DNA of 33,341 bases from contig JAGHST010000050.1 of the NCBI GenBank assembly GCA_018065695.1, positions 1-33,341 on the forward strand, read 5' to 3'. The DNA comes from Candidatus Cacconaster caballi (lineage in GTDB: Bacteria > Bacteroidota > Bacteroidia > Bacteroidales > UBA932). Shown here piece by piece: positions 3,481 to 33,116 of the stretch; positions within the stretch are counted from its first letter, which is position 1; the number at the start of each line of letters is the position of its first letter. Below the pieces are notes generated by a model. The model worked only from the letters and a program-made list of their open reading frames with translations, searched no databases and was not told the origin of the DNA. The translations under genes were made by a program, and so were the position numbers.

Positions 3481-3501
3481 CCATCAAACCTAGAGACAAT
3501 C

Positions 3502-6484: not shown

Positions 6485-8257
6485 TTACCAACCAGGGTTC
6501 TGACCTATCTGAGGGTTGTAGTCAGCCTGACCTGAAGGGATAGGACGCAGGTACTGACGAGCCTCGAACTTGCGGTCACCATAGCTTGCTGTCGAGAGAT
6601 ATCCTCTTGAATCAGTCTTGGCTGTGCTGCCATTTGCAATGTGGTCACCTACCCAAGCACCGGAAACGATGTCAGGATATTTGACAGTGTCGAGTTTGTC
6701 GAGCTGATGCCAACGGATGAGGCACCAGTAGCGGTCATCGTTGTCGTACATAAGTTCTACGCGGCGCTCACGACGTACTTCCCAAAGAAGGTCACTGATA
6801 CCCATATTGTTCTTAGGGTCAGCCTTCGGAGTTTTGGAAAGGTGAGGCATACCTACGCGGTCACGAAGCTTGTTGATGTCTGCAACTGCACCATCAGCAT
6901 CACCGGTTTCAGCGCAAGCCTCTGCATGGTTGAGAAGAATGACTGCAAGCCAGTAAACCGGAGCGTCGGTGTAGCAGGAGTTTGCATTGTTTCTGTGAAT
7001 CCACTCGATGTTGAGGTTGTCGAACTTCTTCACACCGTAGCCGGAAGAAGAAGTAGTAGCCATAGATCCACCATCGTAGCCGATACGTGGAGTTGCTGAT
7101 GTACCGTTGTACATGAGGCAATCGTCAACGTCGATGGCAAGACGTGGGTCACGGGTTGCAAGAACTGCAGAGAGGTCTGTATCCCAAGTGGTTGTTCCTT
7201 CTACTACTTTCTCTGTGAAGACAGCTTTGTCATTCTTGTCGCAAGTTGTGTTTGCGAGGCATTCGCCGTCGATGAAGAGGAATGAGTCGAAAGCATCCTT
7301 TGACATACCCTTCTGAGTTGTGGAAGAAACGGTATAGTCGCTGACACCGTGGGTGATAAGGCTGGTCTCATACTTTTTGTACATAATCATTTCAGTATTG
7401 CCTGCCAAATCGAGTGAATTGTAGTTGGCCTGATATGCCGGATATTTTGCAAATACGCCACCAGGTCCAGGCTGTGCGTTCTCCTTGGTATTGAGTGCGT
7501 ACATTGAATTACCGATGATAGCGGCCGATGCTGATTTCGACTCAGTGAGGAACCTTTCTGCACGAGATTTGTCGGCAGCCTTGCCGTTCTCGTCAGCAGT
7601 GCGATACTTGCAGAATGTTCCCTCATAGAGGCAGATTTCAGACTTGATAGCCTGTGCAACCTGCTGATTGAACTCAGTCCTGCCTGATGTTGCAGGGATA
7701 TTGAGAACAGCATAGTTGAGATCTTCGAGAACTTTGTCCATAACGCCGTCACGATCCTGACGAGGTCCGTAGAGAACGTCTTCGTCCTGAGGAGTGAGAA
7801 CTTTCTCAACCCAGTAGCAATCACCGAACTGGCGAACCAGCTCATAGTGTTGCATAGCTCTGTAGAGACGTGCTATGCCTTCCCATTTCGCTTTCTTTGT
7901 CTCGCTCATTCCAGGAACGTCCTTGATGTGTTCGATGAGAATGTTTGCACGACGGATCTCAGAATAGCAGTTGTTCCAATTTGAGTTGGAAGCATCTACA
8001 GATGTTGACTTCCAGTTCTGGAATGAAGATGATAGCTGGTTGTCGTTGAGCGATGGGAAATAGAAATTTCCTGAACCGCCGGTTCCGTAGGCAGTGAATG
8101 TTGAATAGAAGTAGTTGGCATACAATTCAACGTTTGCTTCACTTGACCAATAGTTGTCGTTTGTGAACTTTGTAAGAGGGTCCTTTGTGAGAACTTTTTC
8201 ACAGGATACCAGTACAAGGCTCGCGATAACAGCAAGTATAAATATTGATTTTTTCAT
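6485..8257 (-). CDS. SusD/RagB family nutrient-binding outer-membrane lipoprotein
   Basis: 590 residues, the normal RagB/SusD length. The signal peptide ends in SLVLVSC with Cys19 as the lipid anchor. The mature start 'EKVLTKDPLTKFTNDNYW' and the following NVELYANYFYSTF and RRANILIEHI stretches are characteristic of classical SusD proteins (helical TPR part). The C-terminal RERRVELMYDNDDRYWCLIRW block is the well-conserved late SusD motif. The gene is second in a minus-strand pair, 19 bases behind the SusC-like gene. It should bind the ligand at the cell surface and hand it to that transporter. The substrate is unknown and no enzyme gene is attached to this pair. Confidence 0.95.
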   Translation of the reverse strand: MKKSIFILAVIASLVLVSCEKVLTKDPLTKFTNDNYWSSEANVELYANYFYSTFTAYGTGGSGNFYFPSLNDNQLSSSFQNWKSTSVDASNSNWNNCYSEIRRANILIEHIKDVPGMSETKKAKWEGIARLYRAMQHYELVRQFGDCYWVEKVLTPQDEDVLYGPRQDRDGVMDKVLEDLNYAVLNIPATSGRTEFNQQVAQAIKSEICLYEGTFCKYRTADENGKAADKSRAERFLTESKSASAAIIGNSMYALNTKENAQPGPGGVFAKYPAYQANYNSLDLAGNTEMIMYKKYETSLITHGVSDYTVSSTTQKGMSKDAFDSFLFIDGECLANTTCDKNDKAVFTEKVVEGTTTWDTDLSAVLATRDPRLAIDVDDCLMYNGTSATPRIGYDGGSMATTSSSGYGVKKFDNLNIEWIHRNNANSCYTDAPVYWLAVILLNHAEACAETGDADGAVADINKLRDRVGMPHLSKTPKADPKNNMGISDLLWEVRRERRVELMYDNDDRYWCLIRWHQLDKLDTVKYPDIVSGAWVGDHIANGSTAKTDSRGYLSTASYGDRKFEARQYLRPIPSGQADYNPQIGQNPGW

Positions 8258-8276
8258 ATTCTTTGTCCTCCCTTAA

Positions 8277-11200
8277 TTAGAATGTAAGCTGAACGCCGAA
8301 TGAGTAAGTGCGCATGAGAGGATCCACGCGGCCCCAGTCGTAATTGCTCTTTTCATTGATTTCAGGGTCAATGCCGAGACCTTTGTTATGGTTGATAAGG
8401 TCGATAGCATTGTTGATGGTACCATACACTCTGATTTTCTCGATAGAGATCTTGCGAGTGGCTTTCTGAGGGATAGTGTATCCGAGGGTGATGTTCTTCA
8501 GACGGAGATATGCCATATTGAGGATATATCTTGACTGAGGATAGAAGTTGTAGCGGCCTGTCTGAAGGATATTTGAAGAAGCCTTGCCCTGGCTGCCTTC
8601 ACCCGGGTAGAGACGAGGCTGTGTGTGGCTCTGGTCGATTGTACCTGTGCCTGCGATAGCTTTCTCGATTTCTGCATTGCTTACATAGTCCATCTGAGAT
8701 GCGTAGATGGCATCTGCACCACGTGAGTAAGGCATTACGAACTGAGAGACTGTCCAGATGTCACGTTTGCCCACGCCCTGGAAATAGAGGTCGAGGTCAA
8801 AGCCGTTCCAGCTTGCGCCGGCGCGGAGTGAATACTGGAAGCGCGGCTGGCTGTTACCAATCTTGATAAGGTCGCCGTGGTCCTCTTCTGTACCTTTGCC
8901 CCAGTCGATCTTACCATCGTTGTTCTTGTCGACGAACTTGATGTCACCTGTCTGGAACTTGAAGCTGCCGCTTTCGAGAGCTGTCTGGTCAAGGCTGGCT
9001 ACGTCAGCAGGATTTGCGAAGTAACCTGCGGTTTCGAAACCCCAGATGTCTCCGTAGGTCTTGCCTGAATATGTAGTGTTGAGCAGAGGGTTGTCGTTAT
9101 CCCAGTGTGTTACGACTGTAGTGAAGTCTGAAAGGTTTCCGATAGCGTAAACGTTCCAGTTGCCGAAAGTCTTGTGCCAATCGAGGGTGAGTTCCCAACC
9201 GCGTGAGCGGAGGTTACCTGCATTCTGCTTTGCAGCGCCGGTACCGATTACTGCAGGGAGGGTCTTGCCAGGAGCAAGCATACCGATGGTCTCTCTCTGG
9301 AACCAGTCGAAGGTTACGTTGAATTCTCCATTGAAGAAGCCCATATCGAGACCTACGTCTGTAGTGTTGATTGTTTCCCAGGTAAGGGTAGGGTCAACCA
9401 TTGAAGGCATTGAGAAGTAGCTGTACTTTGAAGAGCCTGTTCCGAGCCAGTTGACTGCATTTGACTGCTTTGACATAGTCTCGAGGAATACGTCAGTACC
9501 GATTTCCTGGTTACCGATTGAACCGTAGGAAGCGCGGAGTTTCAGGTTGCTGATAACATCCTTGGCGTTCTGGAAGAAAGATTCCTCTGAAATTCTCCAA
9601 CCTGCGGATACTGAAGGGAAGAATGCCCAGCGGTGCAGTTTAGGGAACTTGGATGAACCGTCATAACGGCCGTTGAGCTCGATGAAATAACGGTTGTCGA
9701 AGTTGTAGTTGATTCTTCCGAAGAAACCTGCTGAACCCTGATGGGTGTGGCTCTGTGTGTAAGAGTAGAATGTAGGGGTCAGTGCAAGTTCAGGGAGGTT
9801 AGGATCCTGGATATCGTGGTTCTCATAGTAGAGATACTGATAGTCGGACTCGTCTGCGTTGAAACCGAGCATTGCGGTGAAGTTGTGCTTGCCACCCCAG
9901 GTTGCTTCGTATTTACCGTAGATATTGGTGTTGTATCCGTAGGTGAATGAGCGGTCTGTCTCAACGAAAGTCGAGCTGCCCATATTTGCTGCAGCGAGAG
10001 TGCCGTCTGCGTTCTTGATGTTGCTCCAGGTGTTGACCAGATAAGAGTCAAGACCTACGCCCTTGTACTGGGTGTTCTTGAACAGATAAGTGAAGTCAGC
10101 ATTGAGAGTGAGGCCTTTTGTGAAGGTGATGGTGGTGAAGGCGCCGAGACGGAGGTTGCGGGTCTTGTCGTAAGAGTCACCTGCAGTCTTGCGGTAGCCG
10201 ATCATGTTTCGTGCATCAACCTGATTGCCGTCTTCATCCTCGAAGTAGCCCCAAGGACCGAACATTGAACCCCATCTCCACATATATGTGTAGTTTGCCT
10301 GACGCATATACGGGTAAGTGTATTTCTTTTCAGAGTAGTTGACACGGGTTCCGACCTTCAGCCATTTGGTTATCTGAGAGCTGAGGTTCACGTTTGCAGT
10401 GAATCTTGAAACCTTGTCAGGGTTGAAGTTAACAAGGCCCTGCTCCTGGTTGTAACCGAAAGACATATAATAGTTGGTCTTGCCGGTGCTGCCCTGGATA
10501 GCGATGCTGTGGTTCTGTGAAGGGGTTGCATTGTTGAACATGATGCCATTGACATCCCAGTCTGCCACATAGCTGGCCTGACGGCTTCCTGCCGGGAAGA
10601 AGTAGTCATCGCCTTCAATCATCTTGCGGTAGCCAGACTTCTTTCCGTGCTTGTTCTGCCAAGCAATTGCTGCTGCCTGATATTCAGGAGAGTTGAAGTA
10701 CATACCGAAGAGTTCAGGGTCTGCCTTGATGTTTTCATTTGCATCGCAGAATGCATACATCTGGTTGACGACGGTGTCATAGTCAGGAAGGTTTGTTGCC
10801 TGGCTCCAGCCGAAGTTGTTGTTGTATGTCACTGAGAATTTTTCTTCCTGCTGAGAGCCGCTCTTTGTTGTGATGAGAACGACGCCGAATGCAGCGCGGG
10901 TACCGTAGATTGAGGTAGAAGCGGCATCCTTAAGGATGGAAATCTTCTCAATGTCGTTTGGATTGAGGTAATTGATATTGTCAATTGGCACTCCGTCAAC
11001 TACATAGAGAGGCGGTGTGTTGCTTGTGGTCAATGTACCGATACCACGGATGGAGATTGACGGGTCATCGTTGATGTTACCGGAAGTGTTGAGGATTGTA
11101 AGACCAGGAACTGCACCCTGAAGAGCTTTGCTGAGGGATGCGGTAGGTTTTGAATCCAATGTCTTGGTGACATCGACTGTTGAAACGGCGCCGGTCAGGT

Positions 11201-11561
11201 TTGCCCTGCTCTGTGTGCCGTAACCGACTACGACGACATCGTCAAGGAACATAGTGTCATCTTCAAGGGTAGCGTCGATGACGGCTCTACCGTTGACAGC
11301 CACTGTAAGATCCTTGTAGCCCATACAAGAGAATACGAGGCTTCCCTTTGAAGGAGCCGTAAGCTTGTATGCGCCAAGGCCGTCTGTTGTTGCTCCGGTG
11401 TTTGTTCCCGCAATGAGAACATAAGCACCTACAACAGGCTCGCCAGCTTTGTCGGTAACTTTACCGCTTACGCTGACATTCTGAGCCCACATTGTGCCTG
11501 CTGAGAGGACCAATGCGAACATAGCTACGAAAGCATAGCCAAGTTTTTTGGAAACTGACAT
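8277..11561 (-). CDS. SusC/RagA family TonB-dependent outer-membrane transporter
   Basis: 1094 residues. The signal peptide is ended by MWAQ near residue 27, then a carboxypeptidase-regulatory-like domain (about 30-105) and a TonB-box-like DDVVVVGYGTQ (about 107-117). The plug domain has ISIRGIGTL and PLYVVDGVPIDN and is followed by KISILKDAAS. The C-terminal barrel ends in a terminal Phe. This is the most common SusC form, unlike the first pair in this window. It is first in a minus-strand unit with the SusD-like gene. A hairpin terminator from the gene upstream lies in its leader, so it probably has its own promoter, but no convincing one was found. The ligand is unpredictable from sequence. 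Confidence 0.95.
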   Translation of the reverse strand: MSVSKKLGYAFVAMFALVLSAGTMWAQNVSVSGKVTDKAGEPVVGAYVLIAGTNTGATTDGLGAYKLTAPSKGSLVFSCMGYKDLTVAVNGRAVIDATLEDDTMFLDDVVVVGYGTQSRANLTGAVSTVDVTKTLDSKPTASLSKALQGAVPGLTILNTSGNINDDPSISIRGIGTLTTSNTPPLYVVDGVPIDNINYLNPNDIEKISILKDAASTSIYGTRAAFGVVLITTKSGSQQEEKFSVTYNNNFGWSQATNLPDYDTVVNQMYAFCDANENIKADPELFGMYFNSPEYQAAAIAWQNKHGKKSGYRKMIEGDDYFFPAGSRQASYVADWDVNGIMFNNATPSQNHSIAIQGSTGKTNYYMSFGYNQEQGLVNFNPDKVSRFTANVNLSSQITKWLKVGTRVNYSEKKYTYPYMRQANYTYMWRWGSMFGPWGYFEDEDGNQVDARNMIGYRKTAGDSYDKTRNLRLGAFTTITFTKGLTLNADFTYLFKNTQYKGVGLDSYLVNTWSNIKNADGTLAAANMGSSTFVETDRSFTYGYNTNIYGKYEATWGGKHNFTAMLGFNADESDYQYLYYENHDIQDPNLPELALTPTFYSYTQSHTHQGSAGFFGRINYNFDNRYFIELNGRYDGSSKFPKLHRWAFFPSVSAGWRISEESFFQNAKDVISNLKLRASYGSIGNQEIGTDVFLETMSKQSNAVNWLGTGSSKYSYFSMPSMVDPTLTWETINTTDVGLDMGFFNGEFNVTFDWFQRETIGMLAPGKTLPAVIGTGAAKQNAGNLRSRGWELTLDWHKTFGNWNVYAIGNLSDFTTVVTHWDNDNPLLNTTYSGKTYGDIWGFETAGYFANPADVASLDQTALESGSFKFQTGDIKFVDKNNDGKIDWGKGTEEDHGDLIKIGNSQPRFQYSLRAGASWNGFDLDLYFQGVGKRDIWTVSQFVMPYSRGADAIYASQMDYVSNAEIEKAIAGTGTIDQSHTQPRLYPGEGSQGKASSNILQTGRYNFYPQSRYILNMAYLRLKNITLGYTIPQKATRKISIEKIRVYGTINNAIDLINHNKGLGIDPEINEKSNYDWGRVDPLMRTYSFGVQLTF

Positions 11562-11677: not shown

Positions 11678-12736
11678 TTACTGCTCGGCGCGGGCCATTG
11701 CCTCTTCGAAATCCGGAGTACCCTTCCAGACCTCGTGGGTATATGGGTTGATGCCCTGTGCCTTGGCGCGCTTTATTATGAAGCCCAGAACCAGCACATT
11801 GGCAACCAGAGCGAGTATCGCCACGATGCCCTGTGCTACCGGAGAGCCAAGAGCAGGCTGAACTGCAGGGTTGGAAAGGTCGATAGCCATTGTGTTCTGC
11901 GCATATTCTGCACCGTATATTACAGGAAGAGTCGAGAACTTGGTTCCAACCTGGAACAGAGGCACTACCTGAGCGAACATACACCAGATGGCCAGAGTGT
12001 TGGCACGGTTCTGAATCCAACCGCCCTTGTTCCACAGCATAGCGGCGAATGTCGGAGCTGCAAGAAGCGCGAGTCCGCAGTACCAAGAGTGGGTAGGAAG
12101 GTTCAGGTATGTGTAGGTGAAATTCCAAATGTCATAAGCGATTATGAAGGAGAATGTCATATCAGGCCACAGCATATCCTGCCTGTTCTTATCCTTGGAA
12201 CTGTAGATGCCCCACCAGCCTGTCATACAGAGAATGTTGAGAATGCCGGCAATGCCGTTGAGCCAGTTCCACCATCCGCCATAGAGCCACACACCTTCGC
12301 TTGAATACCACCATCCGCCGGTGAAGCCGCCTTTGATGGCCGATTCGAAATCGGAGCCGACTGCAATCAGGATATTGAGTGCGACGATGATGAAAGGAAA
12401 CGGCTTGAACCATTCCTTTGCACCGATGCCCCATTTGTATTTGAGCATCATGAAACCGATACATCCTGCAGTTGCGGCATAAAGTTTCGCATAGTGGAAC
12501 CATCCGTTCATATAGACGTGTGTCGGATTGTTCAAAGCCCATTCTGCACCGCAGGAAGCACCGACGGCGATTGCAATGAAGTAGGCTGTCAGAGCCAAAG
12601 GCACCACCAGAAAGAAGAATATTCCTCCGGCCTTCGTGCGACGTGCTATCTCATTGGTGACAATGAGGCTGACGAATACCAGCAACCATCCCAGAAGCTG
12701 GTACATCGAGAAATCTCCATAAAGATGGAATAACAT
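11678..12736 (-). CDS. Polytopic inner-membrane protein of unknown function (DUF5692-like)
   Basis: 352 residues with about eight or nine hydrophobic spans (for example residues 11-28, 38-60 and later stretches) and many Trp/Gly-rich loops (GGWWYSSEG, GGWWNWLNG, TGWWGIY). The C-terminal tail after the last span is hydrophilic and likely cytoplasmic. I recognise the overall pattern as that of proteins labelled DUF5692, but from memory only. No transporter or enzyme motif is evident. The first ATG is used here; Met11 (MYQLLGWLL) is an alternative start and leaves an equally good first membrane span. The gene stands alone, divergent from the FeS flavoprotein gene 101 bases away and separated from susC by a hairpin. 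Confidence 0.6.
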   Translation of the reverse strand: MLFHLYGDFSMYQLLGWLLVFVSLIVTNEIARRTKAGGIFFFLVVPLALTAYFIAIAVGASCGAEWALNNPTHVYMNGWFHYAKLYAATAGCIGFMMLKYKWGIGAKEWFKPFPFIIVALNILIAVGSDFESAIKGGFTGGWWYSSEGVWLYGGWWNWLNGIAGILNILCMTGWWGIYSSKDKNRQDMLWPDMTFSFIIAYDIWNFTYTYLNLPTHSWYCGLALLAAPTFAAMLWNKGGWIQNRANTLAIWCMFAQVVPLFQVGTKFSTLPVIYGAEYAQNTMAIDLSNPAVQPALGSPVAQGIVAILALVANVLVLGFIIKRAKAQGINPYTHEVWKGTPDFEEAMARAEQ

Positions 12737-12837: not shown

Positions 12838-15684
12838 ATGCCGGACATTTCAAACAAATTCGTCCCTGCCCATAAAGGTGACAAGAACCCCAATAAGAAA
12901 CTTCTCAAATTCGTCAGAAAAGTAACCGACCGCGTCCCGGGTAAAATCAAAGGCATTACCACCTACGATCCGGAATATTGGGGACTGGCCTGCATTTTCG
13001 AGGATGAGATGGACTCGAAAACAAGAGAAGCGGCGCTTGACCTGCTGCTGGATGTGGTTTCGAAGAAGTTCATGAGAGTTCGTGAACACCGTCCCTACAG
13101 GATACTCGTCGAATGGAATCATAAAAAGCACTACACGGAGAGCGACGAAGAGTTCGATGCCCTGCTGGATAAACTGGCATATTTCGGAATGCTGGAATAT
13201 GACTACGGTGACAAATATACGAAGGACGGTCCGGTGGAAGGGACGACCTACAACAGGGAGGACAGGGAATATTGGGTTCCCCTCTTTGTACCGGGTTCGG
13301 CCGAATATACCAATATGAACACGGAGTTGATGGACCGTCATCCGGAGCTTGCAATGTTCTTCGAGCGCATGACATTCCTCCCTCTGGAAAAAATTACACC
13401 GATGGTACCTCCGGGAGGAGCCGGCATAGGAATGCACGTCATTCCTGTAGAGAAAGCTATCTCTATGGAGAGCCAATCTATTGATATAGAACATATTTCA
13501 TATTGGTTAAAAAAATATGAAGGCCACATCGGCGCAGCAATATGTTCCTGCCGCTACGGCCGCAAGAAATTGGACGAAGGATGTGCCGACGATTACCACG
13601 ACTGGTGCATCGCAGTCGGAGATATGGCTGATTACTGCCGTGAGACAGGACGCGGACGCGATATCACGTACGAAGAGGCGATGGAAATTTTCAAGCGGGC
13701 CGAGGACAACGGATACGTACACCAGATAACAAACATCGACGGTGAAGGCAAGATATTCGCCATCTGCAACTGCAATGTCAAGATATGCAACGCCTTACGA
13801 ACTTCTCAGCTATTCAATACCCCGAATCTGTCGCGCAGCGCATACGTTGCCAGGGTGGAGAAGGACAAATGCGTCGCCTGCGGCCGATGCGTGGAATATT
13901 GCCCTGCCGGCGCAGTAAAACTCGGTCAGAAACTCTGCACCTCGCACGGAGAAATACAATATCCTAAGCATGAATTGCCTGACGATCACAAATGGGGAGT
14001 GGAAAAATGGGATGAAGATTACCGCGACAAGAATCGCATAAATTGCTATCCGACCGGAACAGCCCCATGCAAGACTGCCTGCCCTGCTCACATTGCAGTA
14101 CAAGGCTATCTGAAGAAGGCCGCCGAAGGCAAATACAAGGAAGCACTCGAACTGATTAAAAGGGAGAATCCGTTCCCGGCTGTATGCGGGCGCATATGCA
14201 ACAGGAGGTGTGAAGACGCCTGCACACGAGGGACAATAGATAAGCCTATCGCAATAGATGCTGTCAAGAAGTTCATCGCTCAGCAGGACCTGAAAGCAGA
14301 AACACGCTTCGTTCCAGAAATAGTAATCGGCTCTAACAGAGGACGCTGGAAGGAGAAAATCGCCATTGTCGGCGGAGGTCCGGCCGGCTTGTCCTGCGCT
14401 TATTTCCTTGCAACGATGGGATACTGCCCGACAGTGTTCGAAAAGAATGAAGAACCGGGAGGTATGCTCCGCTACGGTATTCCTTCATATAAGTTGGAAA
14501 AAGATGTCATCGCCGCCGAGATTGATATAATGAAAGAAATCGGAGTGGAAATCAAAACCGGAGTAGAAGTCGGCAAGGATGTTACCATCGCTCAGTTGCG
14601 CGAACAGGGCTTCGTAGGCTTCTATGTGGCCATCGGCTGCAGCGCAGGCCGTCTGCCGGGCATCCCCGGAGAAAATCTGGAGGGCATCGGCACTGCCATC
14701 AGTTTCCTGCACGAGGCCAATACAGGAAAGGTGAAACTAAGTGGTGATGTGGTTGTTGTGGGAGGAGGCAACGTTGCCGTAGATGCAGCCCGCGTAGCAA
14801 AGAGAAGCGGAGCCGCGAGCGTTACTATGGTATCTCTGGAGACGGAAGAGATTATGCCCGCCTCACCGGAAGAAAGGCGTGAAGCCACAGAAGACGGCAT
14901 AGTTTTCAAATGCGGATGGGGGCCGAAAGAAATCCTTGGCGACAAAACGGCAGAAGGCATTGTATTCAAGAAATGTACGTCCGTATTCGATGATGAGCAC
15001 CGTTTCTCCCCGAAATATGATGAAGAGCAGTTGTTGACACTCAATGCCGGTACCATCATCTTTGCCATAGGACAAACCGTAGTGCTCGGCGACCTGCTTG
15101 AGGGAACAAAGGTCGAATTCGCTCGCGGAGTGTTCCCGATAGCGGACAAACTCACCTATCAGACGGCACAGGAAGACATATTCGTGGGCGGAGACTGCTA
15201 TACGGGTCCAAAGTTCGCCATCGATGCCATCGCTGCCGGCAAGGAAGCGGCCGAATCCCTGCACAGGTTCGTGCAGCACGGCCATATGACCATCGGGCGC
15301 AACCGCAGGGATTTCATCGAACTTGACAAATCAGACATTGTCGTTCCTTCATACGACAACTCATCGCGCCAGGAAGCCGGAAAAGAGCCTCAGAGCGATC
15401 CTTTCCGCGACTACCACAAAACTCTCACCGAGGAGCAGGTAAGGAAGGAAACAGCAAGGTGTCTGTCCTGCGGTGCATCGGTCGTTGACCCTAACAAATG
15501 CATCGGTTGCGGTGTTTGCACCACAAAGTGCGCCTTCGATGCCATACATCTGCACAGGGAATTGCCTGAAGCAAGCAAACTTACCGTATCAGAAGACAAG
15601 TTCGGTGAAATATTGCCATACATCTTCAAACGCAGCAAAGCCATCAGAATCAGGCAGAAAGCTGATAAAAAGAAGGAACGGTAA
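12838..15684 (+). CDS. Multi-cluster iron-sulfur FAD/NAD(P)-dependent oxidoreductase (GltD/NfnB-like core)
   Basis: 948 residues, about twice the length of a GltD-type subunit. Residues 1-330 form an N-terminal region with two Cys groups (C236/C238 and C310/C312/C317) of the kind found beside ferredoxin domains in anaerobes. A ferredoxin motif CX2CX2CX3CP follows at 345-355. The GltD-type region has C411, C415, C450, C454, C458 and C462, then an FAD Rossmann motif GGGPAG (512-517) and a nucleotide-binding GGGNVA (642-647). A C-terminal ferredoxin segment has C875, C878 and CX2CX2CX3C at 888-898. It should be a soluble electron hub between NAD(P)H and a low-potential carrier. The physiological partner is unknown. 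hypA starts six bases after its stop, so the two are probably cotranscribed, linking it to nickel metabolism by context only. Confidence 0.85.
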   Translation: MPDISNKFVPAHKGDKNPNKKLLKFVRKVTDRVPGKIKGITTYDPEYWGLACIFEDEMDSKTREAALDLLLDVVSKKFMRVREHRPYRILVEWNHKKHYTESDEEFDALLDKLAYFGMLEYDYGDKYTKDGPVEGTTYNREDREYWVPLFVPGSAEYTNMNTELMDRHPELAMFFERMTFLPLEKITPMVPPGGAGIGMHVIPVEKAISMESQSIDIEHISYWLKKYEGHIGAAICSCRYGRKKLDEGCADDYHDWCIAVGDMADYCRETGRGRDITYEEAMEIFKRAEDNGYVHQITNIDGEGKIFAICNCNVKICNALRTSQLFNTPNLSRSAYVARVEKDKCVACGRCVEYCPAGAVKLGQKLCTSHGEIQYPKHELPDDHKWGVEKWDEDYRDKNRINCYPTGTAPCKTACPAHIAVQGYLKKAAEGKYKEALELIKRENPFPAVCGRICNRRCEDACTRGTIDKPIAIDAVKKFIAQQDLKAETRFVPEIVIGSNRGRWKEKIAIVGGGPAGLSCAYFLATMGYCPTVFEKNEEPGGMLRYGIPSYKLEKDVIAAEIDIMKEIGVEIKTGVEVGKDVTIAQLREQGFVGFYVAIGCSAGRLPGIPGENLEGIGTAISFLHEANTGKVKLSGDVVVVGGGNVAVDAARVAKRSGAASVTMVSLETEEIMPASPEERREATEDGIVFKCGWGPKEILGDKTAEGIVFKKCTSVFDDEHRFSPKYDEEQLLTLNAGTIIFAIGQTVVLGDLLEGTKVEFARGVFPIADKLTYQTAQEDIFVGGDCYTGPKFAIDAIAAGKEAAESLHRFVQHGHMTIGRNRRDFIELDKSDIVVPSYDNSSRQEAGKEPQSDPFRDYHKTLTEEQVRKETARCLSCGASVVDPNKCIGCGVCTTKCAFDAIHLHRELPEASKLTVSEDKFGEILPYIFKRSKAIRIRQKADKKKER

Positions 15685-15690
15685 CAGACT

Positions 15691-16062
15691 ATGCACGAAC
15701 TTGGAATAGTCTTCTACATCATCAGGGACGTGAAAAAGGTCGCTGAAGAAAATCATTGCGGACGCATCTCAAAAGTAGTTATGGACATTGGAGAGGTGTC
15801 GACAGTGGTGCCGCATCTTCTGACTGACTGCTGGGAATGGGCCGTAAAGAAAGAAGAACTGCTTGAGGGATGCAGGCTTGAAATAAATACAACGCCGGCA
15901 GTGACTTTCTGCGAAGACTGCAAACGCGAATACGACACCGTCAAGCACGGAAAGACCTGCCCCTATTGCAAAGGAGGGAACACCTGGTTGCTTAGGGGCA
16001 ATGAGGTGGAGATAAAGGAGATTGAGGTCAGCGGCTCTGATGGCGGAGCACCGGAGACTTGA
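15691..16062 (+). CDS. hypA: HypA-like nickel metallochaperone
   Basis: 123 residues, slightly longer than the usual 113-118. It begins with the required Met-His-Glu (His2 and the N-terminus bind nickel). Two CXXC pairs, C74/C77 and C90/C93, form the structural zinc site. The C-terminal LRGNEVEIKEIEV strand is also typical. HypA delivers nickel together with HypB, usually for [NiFe]-hydrogenase maturation. Here it follows the FeS flavoprotein gene by six bases. Its last 35 bases overlap, tail to tail, the end of the 96-residue membrane gene of the hypB operon. No other hyp gene and no hydrogenase or urease structural gene is in the window. Confidence 0.9.
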   Translation: MHELGIVFYIIRDVKKVAEENHCGRISKVVMDIGEVSTVVPHLLTDCWEWAVKKEELLEGCRLEINTTPAVTFCEDCKREYDTVKHGKTCPYCKGGNTWLLRGNEVEIKEIEVSGSDGGAPET

Positions 16063-16318
16063 GCACCACCATTATTGTCCATACCAGTGTCACCACAAGC
16101 GACATCGGTATTCCTACGGTAAGCATCTCTTTCAAGCTGAAGGTGAAAAGCTCTCCGTGAGCGATATGATCTACTATCAATACCAGAGAACCGCCCCATA
16201 GCATCTTCTCAAGTGATGGAAGTTGAGCCTTCCAGACTGAATCGTTGGAATTTTTGGTGGCCCTGCGGCTGATGGTTGTAGCAACGGCCTGAGCAAGAGG
16301 TACTATAAAACAAGACAT
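16028..16318 (-). CDS. Small membrane protein downstream of hypB, function unknown
   Basis: 96 residues with an ATG 11 bases after the hypB stop, the same spacing used within the rest of the operon. Three hydrophobic spans are visible: the N-terminal MSCFIVPLAQAVA, the middle KMLWGGSLVLIVDHIAHGE and the C-terminal MSLVVTLVWTIMVVL. Charged residues between them include an SRRATKN loop and a conserved-looking Asp-His pair inside the middle span. No family name comes to mind, though similar short proteins beside hyp genes seem familiar. Its end overlaps the hypA coding end by 35 bases on the opposite strand. The consistent spacing and membrane pattern argue that it is a real gene, perhaps acting with the nickel chaperones, for example in nickel entry or anchoring. 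That role is inference. Confidence 0.65.
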   Translation of the reverse strand: MSCFIVPLAQAVATTISRRATKNSNDSVWKAQLPSLEKMLWGGSLVLIVDHIAHGELFTFSLKEMLTVGIPMSLVVTLVWTIMVVLKSPVLRHQSR

Positions 16319-16329
16319 AGCGGGTTATA

Positions 16330-17007
16330 TTAATTTTTGTTTTTCCAATTTTTAACTTCGGTCAGCAACCAGTCGGTGAAAGCCTGAACTCCTTCTCCTG
16401 TCTTTGCGCATATTGGCATTACCTTCGCCTTGGGATTGCGCAGATGAATGTTTCTGACACATTCCTCATAATTGAAGTCGAAATAAGGGGCGACGTCGAT
16501 TTTATTGACAAGTACCACGTCACAGATTGAAAACATCAAAGGATACTTCAATGGCTTGTCGTGCCCTTCAGGAACACTGAGTATCATAACGTTGCAACAA
16601 CTGCCCGTATCGAACTCAGCCGGGCATACCAGATTTCCGACATTCTCCAGAATCGCAAGGTCCGTCTCCTGCAACGTCAGATTTTCAAGCCCCTGTCGAG
16701 TCATTTCAGCGTCCAGATGGCACATACCCCCCGTATGAAGTTGTATCGTCTCTATTCCGGTCTCCTCCTTTATTTTTCTGGCATCGACATCGCTGTCGAT
16801 ATCAGCCTCCATCACGGCAATTCCAAGCTTGCCCTTCAGAAGGCTGATAGCGCTTATCAGCGTTGTGGTCTTTCCACTTCCCGGCGACGACATCAGATTC
16901 AGGAGGAACACTCCCCTTTCCTTCAATTCCTTTCTCAAATTGTCGGCATCCCTGTCGTTATCCTCGAAGATACTTTTCTTTATTTCGATTATTCTGACTT
17001 CATCCAT
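16330..17007 (-). CDS. hypB: HypB nickel-incorporation GTPase
   Basis: 225 residues, the short form without an N-terminal His-rich or CXXCGC nickel site. The G-domain is complete: P-loop SPGSGKTT (41-48), the ENVGNLVCP block (121-129) and NKID (168-171). The conserved metal-site residues at the dimer interface are present as C96-H97 (in GGMCHLD) and C128. The protein should hydrolyse GTP to drive nickel handover with HypA. It lies 11 bases behind the C1 peptidase gene and 11 bases before the small membrane gene, so it belongs to the long aro-peptidase operon and not to that of hypA. Identification is firm; the nickel enzyme it serves is not in the window. Confidence 0.93.
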   Translation of the reverse strand: MDEVRIIEIKKSIFEDNDRDADNLRKELKERGVFLLNLMSSPGSGKTTTLISAISLLKGKLGIAVMEADIDSDVDARKIKEETGIETIQLHTGGMCHLDAEMTRQGLENLTLQETDLAILENVGNLVCPAEFDTGSCCNVMILSVPEGHDKPLKYPLMFSICDVVLVNKIDVAPYFDFNYEECVRNIHLRNPKAKVMPICAKTGEGVQAFTDWLLTEVKNWKNKN

Positions 17008-19800: not shown

Positions 19801-20841
19801 TCAGATGGAATTAGGGCGTTTAAGCATATCCTTCATAAGAAGGTCTGCGAGAGTTATGGCGGTCATCGCTTCCACAACAGGCGGTACGCGCAGAGCGAAA
19901 CAGGTGTCGTGACGCCCCGGTACCGATATATCAGTCATACATTTGTTGATGAAATCGAAGGTTGACTGCTTCTTTATGATACTGCTGGTAGGCTTGACTG
20001 CAATGCGGAAAACGAGCTCATTGCCGTTCGATATGCCGCCGTTGACTCCGCCGGCCCCGTTTCGGGAGGTGTGACCTTTGGCGTCGATGAACGGATCGTT
20101 GTGCTCGGAGCCTTTCATTCGCGAAGCAGCGAAGCCGTCTCCGAATTCTATGCCGCGGATGCCGGGGATTGTAAATATGGCGTGAGAGAGCATTGATTCG
20201 AGAGAATCGAAGAAAGGCTCTCCAATGCCTGCAATCATATTGTTGCAGCGACACTCGATAATGCCGCCTATGGAATCGCCTTCCTTGATGGTGCTGTCCA
20301 GAAGTTCTTCTACCTTGGACCAGTCTTCCGTGGAAATTCCGCCCACTTCAATCAGTCGCGCCTTGATGCTGATAGGGTCCACGATTTTCTTGGCCACGAC
20401 ACCGGCACCCACCAGAGGGAGCGTCATACGGCCGGAGAAGAAACCGCCACCCATAAAATCGGTGTTCTCAAAGTCGCGTTTCCTGGACGAATATTTGATA
20501 TAGGCCGTAAAATCGGCGTGGCCCGGACGGGGAACGTTTCGGAACGGAGTGTAGTCCTCCGGATGGATGTTGTTGTTTTCGAAGGTGATGGTCAGAGGCT
20601 TGCCGTTGGTTACATATACGCCGTCCCCATTCTTGCCAACACCGCTCTCTATTTGCGGAACATCTTCCTCTATGCGGGATGTTGTGCCCTTGGCGCCACT
20701 TTTGCGGCGAAGGATATCCTCGGTGAAGTCTACACTGTCCAAAGGGATGCCGGCAGGGACACCGCTGATGGTTATACCGATGACCGGAGCATGGGAGGCT
20801 CCGAAAATCTGGACCTTGAATTGGTCTCCGAATGTGTTCAT
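19801..20841 (-). CDS. aroC: Chorismate synthase, divergent
   Basis: 346 residues; catalyses 5-enolpyruvylshikimate-3-phosphate to chorismate with reduced FMN, the last shikimate step. The two catalytic histidines are kept: His17 in FGASHAP and His108 in RPGHAD. However, the usual GESHG reads GASHA, and the common GGRSSARET signature is replaced by GGGFFSGRMT (131-140), closer to the 'HFSGR' form I associate with clostridial enzymes than to the form of Bacteroides. The RNGAGGVNGGISNGN and VPGRHDTC stretches confirm the family. The gene starts four bases after aroDA and ends seven bases before the M24 peptidase gene. Function is very likely; subgroup assignment is from memory. Confidence 0.9.
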   Translation of the reverse strand: MNTFGDQFKVQIFGASHAPVIGITISGVPAGIPLDSVDFTEDILRRKSGAKGTTSRIEEDVPQIESGVGKNGDGVYVTNGKPLTITFENNNIHPEDYTPFRNVPRPGHADFTAYIKYSSRKRDFENTDFMGGGFFSGRMTLPLVGAGVVAKKIVDPISIKARLIEVGGISTEDWSKVEELLDSTIKEGDSIGGIIECRCNNMIAGIGEPFFDSLESMLSHAIFTIPGIRGIEFGDGFAASRMKGSEHNDPFIDAKGHTSRNGAGGVNGGISNGNELVFRIAVKPTSSIIKKQSTFDFINKCMTDISVPGRHDTCFALRVPPVVEAMTAITLADLLMKDMLKRPNSI

Positions 20842-20845
20842 CTCT

Positions 20846-22813
20846 TTATTTTTTCTTCGTTAATTTTCCGACTGTCTCTACAAAGTTAGGAAAAGATTTG
20901 TCAGTTGCATCCATATTGTCGATACGAATTTGACCTTTTACCCTCAATGACGCCAAATAAAGTGCCATTGCCAGACGATGATCTCCGTGTGAGGAGCACT
21001 CCACAACGTCTAAAACATAGTTCTCGCGGCCCTGAATGAAGAGTTCGTCTCCGCACAGGCGGGTGCGGACTCCGATTTTTGCAAACTCCCCGCAGAAGGT
21101 CTTAACCCTGTCGCTTTCCTTGTTGGCAAGACGCTTCACTCCTCCTATCACGCTCTCGCCTGCGGTGAATGTTGCCAGAAGGAACAGAGGCGCGAACAGG
21201 TCCGGCGAGTCGGTCAGGTCGAAATAAAACGGACAGAGGATGCTCTTGCGAACGCTGAGCCTGCCCTCCTTCATCTCCACGTCTATGTTGGAACTTTCCA
21301 TTACAGGCAGGATGACGGCATCGGCCTGAGCGGAATATTCATCCAGATTCTCGATGGTGATGTCGCCCATAATGGCTCCCGCCGCCATCAGCATTGCGGC
21401 TGCGCTCCAATCCTTTTCCACCTCCAGCCCCTGCACCGGACGGATTGTCTGCGGGGCTTCGATAACGTACGAGCGGTGGAACACGGCGGGCTCGTCGCTG
21501 TCGAGGAATCCATCGTCCTCCCCGTGCTCCTCATCCACCCGGCGGATATCCTTCAAGCCGAAATACTCCGCTATTGAAGTGGTAAGGTCGAGATATGGAG
21601 CACTCGCGACATTGTTTATGCCAAGATAACTCTTTCTTTCGCACTGGCTCAGAGCCAGAAGCAGTCCTGATATGGTCTGGGAACTCCTGCTTCCGTCGAT
21701 TATCTCCCATATGTGGTGCAAATTGCCCTCCACAATCACCGGAAGATATGATTTGTCGGTATAGGTGACTTTCACTCCCGCTTTACGGAGAATCTTCTTC
21801 TGGTCGTCGAGTTTGCGGCCCAGCAGAGTTTTCTCGCCTGTTATGGTCACAGGTTCGCGCGAAAGACCGCAAAGGGGAATCAGCAGACGTGCCAGAAGTG
21901 CAGACTCGCCTACCTCCAGGCGGCCGTCACGCACTTTCAGGCCTCCGGCGGCGATGTTCTGATGGCCCTCGATTGTGATGGTGGTGTCCTCCACGAATAC
22001 CTCCGCATAGAGGCTCTCCGCCACCCTTATCGCAGCTCTCACGTCACCGGAGAGGGTCACTCCGAAAAGCCTGGTAGTGCCGCTGGTGAGCGCGGCAAGC
22101 AGAATCGCCCTTTGGGCAAAGCTTTTCGATGAGGGAAGGTTGCTGACCGTGCCTTCCAATGTCAATTCTTTTTTGCTTATGAAATCGAAAAACTGCGGTT
22201 GTCCCTGGGCGGTGGCTCCTTTCCTGGTGGGCGAGAGATAGAAAAAAGGCGCTCCTTTGGCAAAAGAGACGAGTCTTGAATCTCTTCCGTTTTCGCCCAT
22301 GGCAAATGCCACAAGCTGATCCCCGGGGAATTTATCATATAACTTGACCACTGTGTCCCCATCGGTGTCACTGATGGCTCTGGTCACTATTTTGACTATG
22401 TCGGCACCTTCCAGAAAGGCGGAGCGTGCGATTGCCTCAAGTGTCTCAAGGGAATCTGTGGCCACTCTGTTGTGATAGGAGACAATGAGTTTGCATCCCT
22501 TGTTCAGAGCAAGGTTCATCAGCCATTTGCGATTCTTTTCCGGATAGTATGTCGGTATATCGACATAATCGGCTCCGGCAAGAATGGCCAGAGAAAGCAG
22601 TTCGGTCGCTTCTTCGACAGTGACATCGTCTGTTGTGTGGCAGGTGGCGATAAGGACGGAATTGCGCCTGAGCGAGAATATTTCGCGCAGCTGGTCATCG
22701 TCCATCAGACAACTGTCCAGCCTTATCTCTATGGCTGCATCTCTGCGGGTACTTACCATGTAGCCCGTATAGTTGTAGGAGGCCTCTTTCAGGCTGAAAC
22801 AGAGCGTTCCCAT
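20846..22813 (-). CDS. aroDA: Fused type I 3-dehydroquinate dehydratase and EPSP synthase
   Basis: 655 residues with two enzymes in one chain. Residues 1-215 are a type I dehydroquinase: EIRLD with Glu29, His114 in SYHN and the Schiff-base Lys141 in DIVKIV. Residues 216-655 are EPSP synthase: Lys230 in LPSSKS, GSRSSQT, VEKDWSAA, SPDLFAP, KESDR, HGDHRLAM and DKSFPNF all fit in order. The PEP-loop usually written GNAGTAMR reads GESALLAR (302-309); the Arg is kept, but the position aligned to E. coli Gly96 is Ala. It performs shikimate steps 3 and 6. The ATG start gives an immediate first strand (LCFSL), and it overlaps the aroB end by 25 bases, suggesting translational coupling. The fusion order is uncommon; the SDH and kinase steps are not encoded nearby. 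Confidence 0.92.
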   Translation of the reverse strand: MGTLCFSLKEASYNYTGYMVSTRRDAAIEIRLDSCLMDDDQLREIFSLRRNSVLIATCHTTDDVTVEEATELLSLAILAGADYVDIPTYYPEKNRKWLMNLALNKGCKLIVSYHNRVATDSLETLEAIARSAFLEGADIVKIVTRAISDTDGDTVVKLYDKFPGDQLVAFAMGENGRDSRLVSFAKGAPFFYLSPTRKGATAQGQPQFFDFISKKELTLEGTVSNLPSSKSFAQRAILLAALTSGTTRLFGVTLSGDVRAAIRVAESLYAEVFVEDTTITIEGHQNIAAGGLKVRDGRLEVGESALLARLLIPLCGLSREPVTITGEKTLLGRKLDDQKKILRKAGVKVTYTDKSYLPVIVEGNLHHIWEIIDGSRSSQTISGLLLALSQCERKSYLGINNVASAPYLDLTTSIAEYFGLKDIRRVDEEHGEDDGFLDSDEPAVFHRSYVIEAPQTIRPVQGLEVEKDWSAAAMLMAAGAIMGDITIENLDEYSAQADAVILPVMESSNIDVEMKEGRLSVRKSILCPFYFDLTDSPDLFAPLFLLATFTAGESVIGGVKRLANKESDRVKTFCGEFAKIGVRTRLCGDELFIQGRENYVLDVVECSSHGDHRLAMALYLASLRVKGQIRIDNMDATDKSFPNFVETVGKLTKKK

Positions 22814-23739
22814 ATAACAGGTTTGCCAATGTCTTCAAGCAAAATGAATTTCTGTCTGTCGCCGCTGCGCTTCTTGTCCTGAAGGATAGCCTTCATCAGT
22901 TGCGCGGCAGGAATGTCGCACTCTGTCGGAAGTCCGACGGAGTAAAGGTCTTTCTTTATGGCAGCGGCTGTTGCAGGCTGGAGCAGGCCCTCTTTTACAG
23001 ATTCGTCACAAGCCATTGAAATGCCTATGGCCACCGCTTCTCCATGCAGATAGAGGTCGGAGCACTTCTCTATGGCGTGGGCGAAAGTGTGTCCGAGATT
23101 CAGGATATGGCGGCGGCCTCTGTCCTGATAATCTTCCGCCACTATGCTGCTTTTTATCTGCACGGCGCGTCTGACGAGCGTGTCAAGTATGCCCGGCTCT
23201 GGCGTCCCTCTCGAAAAACACCTGACTGCAGCGGCATAACTTTCTGCGTCTGCAAGGAGGAATGTCTTTATCATCTCGGCGGCACCGCATCGCAACTGCC
23301 TGTCAGGCAGAGTGACGGTCAGTTTCGGGTCTATATAGACAAATTCCGCCCCGGCGAAGCAGCCGAGGATATTCTTGAAGCCGTCGAAATTCACTCCGCA
23401 TTTTCCTCCGATGGAAGCATCTACCTGGGCCAGCAGTGTTGTAGGGACAAGGCCGTAAGGCATTCCACGCTTATAGATTGAGGCCGTCAGGCCCACAAGG
23501 TCCGTCACGATGCCGCCGCCTATGCCCAGCAACAGAGTGTCGCGACCGGCCTCCTGTTCGAGAAGCCAGCGGACGATGGACTCTACTGTCCTGAGACTTT
23601 TTGCCTGCTCCGAGGCGTGGACATAATAGACGGGACAGGGCGGCTTTGGAAAACGGCTGCTCTTAAAAAAATCATCAACAACGGCCACTGTATGGCTGTT
23701 GTTGATGACCGGATAGGAGTATATTACGTTATCTTTCAA
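22789..23739 (-). CDS. aroB: 3-Dehydroquinate synthase (short N-terminus, start uncertain)
   Basis: About 316 residues from a TTG at 23739; usual AroB is 340-370. Converts DAHP to 3-dehydroquinate with NAD and a divalent metal. Visible motifs: GIGGGIVTDLVG (NAD), PTTLLAQVDASIGGK with GVNFDGFKN, an AAEMIKT segment, NLGHTFAHAIE and LHGEAVAIG, which hold the metal-binding Glu/His residues. The frame also stays open upstream to an ATG at 23796 and a TTG at 23820, but those would overlap the previous gene by 68 or 92 bases. The extra residues there look like an out-of-frame reading of that gene. The TTG at 23739 overlaps its stop by 11 bases and fits coupling. The first NAD-domain strand is therefore short or degenerate. 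It is followed by aroDA with a 25-base overlap. Confidence 0.88.
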   Translation of the reverse strand: MKDNVIYSYPVINNSHTVAVVDDFFKSSRFPKPPCPVYYVHASEQAKSLRTVESIVRWLLEQEAGRDTLLLGIGGGIVTDLVGLTASIYKRGMPYGLVPTTLLAQVDASIGGKCGVNFDGFKNILGCFAGAEFVYIDPKLTVTLPDRQLRCGAAEMIKTFLLADAESYAAAVRCFSRGTPEPGILDTLVRRAVQIKSSIVAEDYQDRGRRHILNLGHTFAHAIEKCSDLYLHGEAVAIGISMACDESVKEGLLQPATAAAIKKDLYSVGLPTECDIPAAQLMKAILQDKKRSGDRQKFILLEDIGKPVIWERSVSA

Positions 23740-24943
23740 TGCTGCCGGCAACAATGTTGGCAATACGTGCGCGAAGTTTGCCTGTACCACCCTCATCCTT
23801 CGGATGTACACGGTGGGCAAGGACTATTACGGCAGTCTTGGAATCGAGGTCCATAATGATGGAAGTGCCTGTATAGCCTGTATGGCAGATGGTGCGGGTG
23901 CGGCTGGTAAGGTCTCCGCGAAGGCCTGCAGCGCTGCTGCGGTTGTCCCAGCCGAGGGCGCGGCCGATCCACTCGTCATTGTCTGAAGGGACGGTAGCCA
24001 TTGCCTCTACTGCTGCAGGGCTGAGTATGCGGCGCCCGTTGACGGCTCCGCCGTTCATGATGGCTGCGCAGATGACTGATGCGTCTTCAGCATTTGTGAA
24101 GACACCGGCATTGCCTGAGTTGCCTGAGTTGGCCAGACGTGCGAGCGGATCGTGAACCTCACCGAGGAGGCAATTGCCGTCTTCCTGAACCTCGGTAGGA
24201 GCAACGAGAGGCATCAGTTCCGGATGACGTTTCTTAGGCTCGTAGCAGGTGTGCTTGAGACCGAGCTTTCCGAACACGTTCTGCTCTGCATAGTCTTCGA
24301 GCTTCATACCGGTAATATTCTGGAGAATATTCTGTACGGTCACGAAATTCAGGCAGCTGTACATATAGCCGGTCTTTGGACGGAAGTTGCGTTTCACTTC
24401 ATTGGCGATGTGCCAGATGAGGGAATCAGGACTGTCCTCACCGAATCTTTCGAGATAAGATGCGGTGGCGATGTATGGAGCTATGCCTGATGTATGTGTC
24501 ATTACATCCTGTACGGTGATGTCAACCTTTTCGCCTGTCTCGGGATCAACCCAAGGCTTGTAGCCGGGGATATACATATCCACCTCATCCGTAAGGCGGA
24601 CGCGGCCGTCCTCTATGAGTTGCATGAATGAAAGGGTTGTGCCTATACATTTGCTGCAGGATGCCATATCGAACATTGTTTCAGGCGTCATAGGGATTGT
24701 GTCCGGATATACCTGTTTGTTGCCGTAAGCCTTGAGAAAGACTATCTTGTCACCGCGCACGACTGACACGACAGCGCCGGGGATATTGCCTTCCTCTATG
24801 GCAAGTGCCACCTCACGGTCAATCTGTGCGAGTTTCTTGGAGTTCATCCCCATCTGCTCCGGGGATACTTTCTTGATTGTGCCCTCTTGTGCGCAGCTTG
24901 CGACAAAGGCAATCATAAGCAGGATGTAAAAAAGCTTTTTCAT
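23729..24943 (-). CDS. Beta-lactamase-fold serine hydrolase lipoprotein (class C/EstB-like)
   Basis: 404 residues. The lipoprotein signal ends in AFVASC (Cys17). Catalytic pattern: Ser95-x-x-Lys98 in ASCSK, Tyr195 in YSCLNF, and HTG at 354-356. The second motif reads Tyr-Ser-Cys where true class C beta-lactamases have Tyr-x-Asn, which points to an esterase, peptidase or cell-wall amide hydrolase rather than an antibiotic-resistance enzyme. It would act in the periplasm or at the outer membrane. It is the first gene of the long operon and its end overlaps aroB. A good promoter lies 24 bases upstream. The substrate is unknown; a link to peptide or peptidoglycan turnover would fit the two peptidases later in the operon. 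Confidence 0.85.
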   Translation of the reverse strand: MKKLFYILLMIAFVASCAQEGTIKKVSPEQMGMNSKKLAQIDREVALAIEEGNIPGAVVSVVRGDKIVFLKAYGNKQVYPDTIPMTPETMFDMASCSKCIGTTLSFMQLIEDGRVRLTDEVDMYIPGYKPWVDPETGEKVDITVQDVMTHTSGIAPYIATASYLERFGEDSPDSLIWHIANEVKRNFRPKTGYMYSCLNFVTVQNILQNITGMKLEDYAEQNVFGKLGLKHTCYEPKKRHPELMPLVAPTEVQEDGNCLLGEVHDPLARLANSGNSGNAGVFTNAEDASVICAAIMNGGAVNGRRILSPAAVEAMATVPSDNDEWIGRALGWDNRSSAAGLRGDLTSRTRTICHTGYTGTSIIMDLDSKTAVIVLAHRVHPKDEGGTGKLRARIANIVAGSIER

Positions 24944-32069: not shown

Positions 32070-32101
32070 CAAATGTACACAATATTAATAAGATTAATCA
32101 A
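32070..32101 (-). promoter_or_regulatory. Promoter of the RND efflux operon, with nearly no leader
   Basis: On the minus strand, TTG (32101-32099) and, after 21 bases, TACATTTG (32077-32070), a perfect TAnnTTTG. The -7 element ends eight bases before the ATG at 32061, so transcripts probably start at, or within a few bases of, the AUG. The -33 part overlaps the last codons of the PI-PLC-like gene. Confidence 0.55.
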
Positions 32102-33102: not shown

Positions 33103-33108
33103 ATGTTG

Positions 33109-33116
33109 CAAATTTA
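33109..33116 (-). promoter_or_regulatory. -7 element of the PI-PLC-like gene
   Basis: TAAATTTG on the minus strand (33116-33109) fits TAnnTTTG and ends six bases before the ATG at 33102, again predicting a leaderless or near-leaderless mRNA. No TTG is seen at the usual -33 distance. Confidence 0.45.

What the first reader, a model, noticed from the sequence alone, without database searches (positions are those of the whole stretch)
12838..17007. Orphan HypA/HypB pair tied to a multi-cluster FeS flavoprotein and a small membrane protein
hypA follows a 948-residue GltD/NfnB-like FeS flavoprotein by six bases. hypB and a 96-residue three-span membrane protein converge on it from the other strand. 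Both chaperones keep their metal residues (HypA His2 and four zinc Cys; HypB C96, H97, C128). HypC, D, E and F and any hydrogenase or urease subunits are absent from the window. In known systems HypA/HypB serve [NiFe]-hydrogenase or urease. Here the client may be a distant enzyme, or the unit may form an undescribed nickel-dependent redox module.
Basis: partly seen in the sequence, partly recalled or inferred. Interest (0 to 1): 0.72.

Follow-up and report, generated by a model that had tools for sequence, protein, structure and literature searches.

The report
IsrA-type reductase module with nickel chaperones
A gut bacterium in which no nickel hydrogenase was found keeps two nickel-loading proteins beside a large electron-transfer enzyme of a family thought to hydrogenate carbon-carbon double bonds, and related bacteria from plant-eating animals keep the same genes together, so it may bear on how such guts saturate plant compounds.

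Summary
The window holds the 948-aa FeS flavoprotein, hypA, a 96-aa hydrophobic protein and hypB as described. In related loci the commonest layout is one strand: hypB, flavoprotein, hypA, small gene, DUF5692 (33 of 59 loci with full flanks). Among 149 genomes of the family, the 10 with HypA over cut-off are the 10 that match the flavoprotein's N-terminal domain (one of them through a shorter ferredoxin-type protein). HypD and the [NiFe]-hydrogenase large subunit reach cut-off in 0 of 149.

It is not an undescribed class. The flavoprotein shows the testable features of IsrA, the putative isoprene reductase of Acetobacterium wieringae, whose homologues were already reported beside HypA, HypB and DUF5692 (PMC10134865). 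Best reading: an NAD(P)H-driven ene-reductase that hydrogenates an unfunctionalised C=C bond and receives nickel from HypA/HypB. Nickel site and substrate are unproven. New here: the small membrane gene, the herbivore-gut Bacteroidales set, and a DUF5692 swap in the window's subclade. One result cuts against the published nickel-site idea: its six cysteines also stand in relatives without adjacent Hyp genes.

The parts
11678..12736 (-). DUF5692 polytopic membrane protein, 352 aa; fifth member of the module, here divergent from the flavoprotein
   Evidence: PF18948 452.6 bits; found at 61 of 80 related loci and 46 of 59 with full flanks; groups with a clostridial copy in a tree of 23 chosen sequences
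12838..15684 (+). IsrA-type FeS flavoprotein, 948 aa: N-terminal domain of about 335 aa with CxC motifs C236/C238 and C310/C312 plus C249, C257, C317; 4Fe-4S at C345-C355; PF14691 and PF07992 core; C-terminal 4Fe-4S C888-C898
   Evidence: domains; conserved residues; found at 78 of 80 related loci
15691..16062 (+). hypA nickel metallochaperone, 123 aa, divergent from hydrogenase HypA
   Evidence: PF01155 107.9 bits; TIGR00100 78.9 bits, below its cut-off of 88.1
16028..16318 (-). small hydrophobic protein, 96 aa, no family; invariant C3, D50, H51, E56 among 36 chosen relatives
   Evidence: found at 59 of 80 related loci and 46 of 59 with full flanks
16330..17007 (-). hypB nickel GTPase, 225 aa, C96-H97...C128
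   Evidence: TIGR00073 230.7 bits, over its equivalog cut-off; found at 64 of 80 related loci and 57 of 59 with full flanks

Best explanation
The five genes form one module built round an IsrA-type ene-reductase. Shown here: the genes are real, stay together in relatives, and occur without HypD or a [NiFe]-hydrogenase large subunit in the genomes searched. Inferred from domain order: NAD(P)H reduces FAD in the NfnB/GltD-like core, electrons run along the 4Fe-4S clusters to the N-terminal domain, and a metal site there reduces an unfunctionalised, probably conjugated, C=C bond. Inferred from gene association: HypB (GTP-driven) and HypA load nickel into this enzyme without the HypCDEF route that builds the Fe(CN)2CO half of a hydrogenase site. 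Inferred more weakly: DUF5692 and the small hydrophobic protein bring a greasy substrate out of the membrane or dock the enzyme there. In the anaerobic gut the reaction would serve as an electron sink.
For: Architecture and spacing match the published IsrA: the two CxC motifs are 74 residues apart in both (C236/C310 here; C180/C254 in IsrA), and the first 4Fe-4S site follows at the same distance. Neighbours match the published neighbourhood of 988 IsrA homologues (HypA 0.73, HypB 0.56, DUF5692 0.40). In 149 family genomes HypA over cut-off and the N-terminal profile pick the same 10 (chance 9e-16 if genomes were independent, which relatives are not). HypD 0 of 149. A clostridial plasmid record carries hypB-flavoprotein-hypA-DUF5692 in a row (54-70% identity). 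In the window's subclade DUF5692 sits on the other side of the flavoprotein and is of clostridial type, yet stays adjacent, which argues for a shared function. [quoted passage not shown]
Against: No enzyme of this family has been purified, as far as the papers seen say. The six cysteines are also kept in 16 ferredoxin-type relatives with no detectable hyp gene in the fetched flanks, and 4 of their 16 genomes show no HypA (2 of these are 98-99% complete), so the cysteines alone do not call for nickel. DUF5692 is missing at 13 of 59 and the small gene at 13 of 59 full-flank loci, and DUF5692 occurs without HypA in 3 of 149 family genomes, so neither is strictly required. The isoprene-specific operon has a second hypA and a ferredoxin gene, absent here.
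Confidence: 0.5

Rival explanations
1. The flavoprotein is an iron-sulfur ene-reductase or electron-bifurcating oxidoreductase without nickel; HypA/HypB here deliver another metal or help build the six-cysteine cluster.
For: The six cysteines are kept in relatives without adjacent Hyp genes. The core is closest in sequence to NfnA/B-type, GltD-type and formate-dehydrogenase-linked subunits of the PDB. HypA falls below the hydrogenase equivalog cut-off.
Against: The known metal ligands of HypA and HypB are conserved, and HypA goes with the N-terminal domain in 10 of 10 family genomes. H200 is invariant in 18 Bacteroidales and the clostridial protein and could be a further ligand (role inferred).
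Confidence: 0.27
2. HypA/HypB serve another nickel enzyme elsewhere in the cell and sit beside the flavoprotein for regulatory or historical reasons.
For: The own genome is only 80.7% complete. Three of the 10 HypA genomes have a partial LarA-like match over cut-off. Ni-SOD and other nickel enzymes were not searched.
Against: The two are inseparable across 149 family genomes and adjacent at 78 of 80 related loci. No hydrogenase, HypD, urease, LarA or CODH was found in the own genome.
Confidence: 0.12
3. The module is a membrane-bound NAD(P)H dehydrogenase or regulator in which DUF5692 and the small protein are the electron-accepting part, with no C=C reduction.
For: Two hydrophobic proteins travel with it at most loci; no substrate is known in Bacteroidales.
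Against: DUF5692 and the small gene are each missing at 13 of 59 full-flank loci while the flavoprotein and hypA stay; the one studied family member is induced by a diene substrate (PMC10134865).
Confidence: 0.08

Closest known systems
IsrA / isr operon, putative isoprene reductase of Acetobacterium wieringae ISORED-2 and strain Y (PMC10134865; PMC9765523)
   Same: About 900-aa flavoprotein with PF14691 + PF07992 core, extra 4Fe-4S sites, N-terminal domain without a Pfam family, two CxC motifs 74 residues apart; HypA and HypB beside it; no [NiFe]-hydrogenase.
   Different: One hypA instead of two, no separate ferredoxin gene, DUF5692 and a small hydrophobic gene added; by published coordinates the 26-residue insert of the isoprene type seems to be missing. 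No substrate known.
Clade 9 IsrA homologues of other anaerobes (PMC10134865, sections 8 and 10), incl. the Subdoligranulum record OY725877.1
   Same: HypA, HypB and DUF5692 as frequent neighbours; the Subdoligranulum cluster has the same four genes in a row.
   Different: The small gene is absent in Subdoligranulum and not named in the sections read; a GntR/FCD regulator stands divergent there, none was conserved at the Bacteroidales loci.
[NiFe]-hydrogenase maturation (HypABCDEF)
   Same: HypA and HypB with their metal ligands.
   Different: No HypD and no hydrogenase large subunit over cut-off in 149 family genomes; HypA below the TIGR00100 cut-off.
NfnB / GltD / dihydropyrimidine dehydrogenase electron-transfer units
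   Same: Residues about 390-880 of the flavoprotein align to PDB chains of this kind.
   Different: The N-terminal 335 residues have no sequence match in the PDB (best E 0.82).

Membership tests
IsrA homologues (clade 9 of PMC10134865) | About 900-aa protein with PF14691 and PF07992 core | tested here: met
   948 aa; PF14691 81.9 bits, PF07992 92.4 bits; feature
IsrA homologues (clade 9 of PMC10134865) | N-terminal part without a recognised domain | tested here: met
   No Pfam match before residue 322 among the 25 families listed
IsrA homologues (clade 9 of PMC10134865) | Two CxC motifs 74 residues apart within a six-cysteine site | tested here: met
   C236/C238 and C310/C312 with C249, C257; IsrA C180/C182 and C254/C256
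IsrA homologues (clade 9 of PMC10134865) | Two further single 4Fe-4S sites, one before and one after the core | tested here: met
   C345, C348, C351, C355 and C888, C891, C894, C898
IsrA homologues (clade 9 of PMC10134865) | Direct alignment or tree placement with IsrA itself | not tested
   The IsrA sequence is in no collection that I could still search
Isoprene-type isr operon (cluster I) | 26-residue insert at IsrA 756-782 | tested here: inconclusive
   From published coordinates only: the span between the first and last 4Fe-4S sites is about 25 residues shorter here; domain start recalled, not computed
Isoprene-type isr operon (cluster I) | Second hypA and a separate ferredoxin gene in the operon | tested here: not met
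   One HypA in the whole genome; no such genes beside the module
[NiFe]-hydrogenase maturation system | HypD present | tested here: not met
   0 of 149 family genomes; 4 of 14 controls ring
[NiFe]-hydrogenase maturation system | Hydrogenase large subunit present | tested here: not met
   Over cut-off in 0 of 149; 3 weak partial matches below it
HypA family | PF01155 over cut-off, His2 and two CxxC | tested here: met
   107.9 bits; H2, C74, C77, C90, C93
HypB family | TIGR00073 over cut-off, CH...C motif | tested here: met
   230.7 bits; C96, H97, C128

The most novel reading that the evidence does not exclude
Uncultured herbivore-gut Bacteroidales carry a nickel-dependent, hydrogenase-free hydrogenating enzyme that saturates conjugated dienes taken from membranes or plant lipids, for example conjugated linoleic acid to vaccenic acid, with DUF5692 and the small protein as substrate-handling membrane partners. 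That would give HypA/HypB a new class of client and give rumen biohydrogenation a missing enzyme.
Probability: 0.18. Interest if true: 0.85.

Novelty: new variant of a known kind. Interest (0 to 1): 0.55.

Why it matters
HypA and HypB are known for hydrogenase and urease; a stable pair without either points to a further nickel client, and the partner is one named gene that can be expressed and assayed. The finding also moves the IsrA family from an isoprene-reducing acetogen into many Bacteroidales of ruminant and horse guts, where unsaturated plant lipids are hydrogenated on a large scale. A 2011 paper whose title I saw in the reference list of PMC9626764 names unclassified uncultured Bacteroidales among likely main actors in ruminal biohydrogenation; no gene was tied to them in what I saw. 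If the substrate is a diene lipid, milk and meat fatty-acid profiles and hydrogen balance in the rumen come into play.

Tried and rejected
Hydrogenase elsewhere in the genome: rejected within the limits of an incomplete genome. Urease: the over-cut-off partial match in the own genome lies in an Amidohydro_3 protein. LarA: the own match is a DUF362 protein. CODH/prismane: none in the 10 HypA genomes of the family; G640, an 11th genome of the order, has one.

Nickel site equals the six-cysteine domain: tested with ferredoxin-type relatives. All 20 aligned rows keep the six cysteines and C317, among them 16 loci without detectable hyp genes in their flanks. Of the 16 genomes of these loci, 12 have HypA over cut-off on another contig and 4 have none (G459 and G694 are 70-78% complete, G578 and G695 98-99%). 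In the opposite direction, G044 has hypA-hypB beside such a ferredoxin-type gene without FAD module; one case only. So the idea is neither proven nor excluded.

DUF5692 as a general Bacteroidota gene: rejected; over cut-off in 1 of 296 phylum genomes, the own one.

Other conserved operon genes: in 80 loci the only further wide clusters (57 and 11 loci) were on the opposite strand and, from the example coordinates, antisense shadows of the flavoprotein and DUF5692; I did not check each member. The next cluster occurs in 6 loci.

Literature: 'DUF5692' occurs in 1 paper and 'isoprene reductase' in 2 of the held open library; searches joining Hyp proteins with fatty-acid hydrogenation, CLA or gut gave nothing on this system. 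PMC12583861 was checked for HypB and is about another system (passages).
Full report
What is there. The window is contig 53 of a 1.38-Mb, 80.7% complete genome. HypA and HypB belong to their Pfam/NCBIfam families and keep their metal ligands; HypA is below the hydrogenase-HypA equivalog cut-off.

Is it conserved. HypA found 233 encoding stretches among GTDB species genomes, of which the best 80 were kept as loci L017-L096. In these 80 the flavoprotein is present at 78, hypB at 64, DUF5692 at 61 and the small gene at 59, many contigs being cut short. Counting only the 59 loci with enough flank: flavoprotein 59, hypB 57, small gene 46, DUF5692 46; 33 have all five on one strand in the order hypB, flavoprotein, hypA, small, DUF5692. 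The window's own layout (DUF5692 minus, flavoprotein plus, hypA plus, small minus, hypB minus) occurs in 3 others (L017, L019, L020), and a shorter form in L018 and L022. No further neighbour was conserved widely (with the caveat given under Tried and rejected). A full set also stands in G640, another family of the order.

Who carries it. From the record titles, 38 of 80 loci name a ruminant or horse source (27 RGIG records from goat, sheep, yak, buffalo and deer; 7 horse; 4 deer or reindeer). A further 25 bear RUG or Tb.RUG names (rumen genomes by my recollection), 13 only SRR numbers, and 4 others no clear host (tally). This reflects which genomes are in GTDB as well as biology. In the wider phylum sample DUF5692 is over cut-off in 1 of 296, the own genome.

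Co-occurrence. In 149 genomes of the family, HypA is over cut-off in 10 and weakly matched in 3 more. The N-terminal profile of the flavoprotein matches the same 10 and no other; in G044 the match is a ferredoxin-type protein, not the flavoprotein, so nine have the flavoprotein. DUF5692 is over cut-off in 12: nine of these ten and three without HypA. HypD 0 of 149, [NiFe] large subunit over cut-off 0 of 149. The unlisted genomes of these searches were not shown to me, but the listed handles agree, so I take the draws as the same. Chance values of 9e-16 and 3e-11 treat genomes as independent, which kin are not.

Where it comes from. A Subdoligranulum variabile plasmid record (OY725877.1) encodes hypB, flavoprotein, hypA and DUF5692 in a row without the small gene, with a GntR/FCD regulator divergent. 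In a tree of 23 chosen DUF5692 sequences the window and its four near relatives group with this clostridial copy (local support 0.96): 71.8% identity, against 60.2-63.1% to 15 other Bacteroidales. The flavoprotein does the reverse: 77.2-82.5% to 13 other Bacteroidales, 63.4% to Subdoligranulum. The HypB tree keeps the window's subclade next to the other Bacteroidales, though its identities overlap (67.1-79.0% against 68.9%). The simplest reading is that this subclade exchanged its DUF5692 gene and kept the new one beside the flavoprotein. The trees are small and my choice of rows was by hand.

What it is. PMC10134865 (abstract, sections 8-10 and passages read) describes IsrA, a 901-aa oxidoreductase induced by isoprene in an operon with two HypA, HypB and a ferredoxin; the host has no [NiFe]-hydrogenase or hypCDEF. 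Its 988 homologues have HypA (0.73), HypB (0.56) and DUF5692 (0.40) near them, and the authors propose that a six-cysteine site with two CxC motifs may hold nickel. The window protein matches in core domains, in the unassigned N-terminal part, in CxC spacing and in the extra 4Fe-4S sites. I could not align it with IsrA itself. By published coordinates it lacks about 25 residues between the outer 4Fe-4S sites, which fits the absence of the insert reported for the isoprene type; this is inference. [quoted passage not shown]

How it most likely works. NAD(P)H to FAD to a chain of 4Fe-4S clusters to a site in the N-terminal domain, where a C=C bond is reduced: inferred from domains. Nickel by HypA/HypB: inferred from gene association. 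DUF5692 and the small protein as substrate or docking partners: weak inference from their hydrophobic nature and linkage. The substrate is open; a conjugated lipid or terpene is plausible in a herbivore gut. In A. woodii and A. fimetarium an oleate hydratase gene lies near the homologue, a hint towards fatty acids.

Result against the nickel-site idea. Sixteen ferredoxin-type relatives in Bacteroidales keep the same six cysteines and C317 but show no HypA or HypB in the fetched flanks. Twelve of their 16 genomes have HypA elsewhere and four have none, two of these near complete. These proteins carry two more cysteines at positions 313 and 315 in the second motif, and so does the G044 protein that does have hypA-hypB beside it. 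So the cysteines alone cannot be read as a nickel signature. H200 and H295 are invariant in the flavoprotein set of 19 rows including the clostridial one; H200 lies in a stretch that the ferredoxin-type G044 protein lacks. Whether they bind metal is unknown.

Verdict. Real, conserved, hydrogenase-free within the limits of incomplete genomes, and a new variant of a known, still uncharacterised kind.

Noticed in passing
L125 2446-4560 (G044 contig 128): A three-gene unit hypA-hypB-ferredoxin-type protein (360 aa) with the six cysteines but no FAD/NAD(P)H part; HypA 31% and HypB about 49% identical to the window's.
   Followed up: partly
L134-L147, L149, L150: A family of 350-430 aa ferredoxin-type proteins with the same six-cysteine domain, spread in Bacteroidales, with no hyp genes detected beside them; function unknown.
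   Followed up: partly
L126 1453-2550, L128 6966-8069, L129 164-1270; L100 7995-8924: DUF5692 genes without flavoprotein or hyp genes nearby in three family genomes and on a Latilactobacillus curvatus plasmid, so DUF5692 may have a role of its own.
   Followed up: partly
window 19801-23820: Chorismate/shikimate genes and two peptidase genes run on the minus strand into hypB; the peptidase next to hypB was not found at the other loci.
   Followed up: no
window 26090-31550 and 32098-33111: An RND-type efflux set (OEP, ACR_tran, HlyD) and a PI-PLC-X domain protein at the end of the window.
   Followed up: no
window 376-5181 and 6485-11561: Two outer-membrane receptor pairs that look like SusC/SusD; for the first gene Pfam gives TonB plug and CarboxypepD_reg domains, the SusD label is from reading the sequence.
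   Followed up: no
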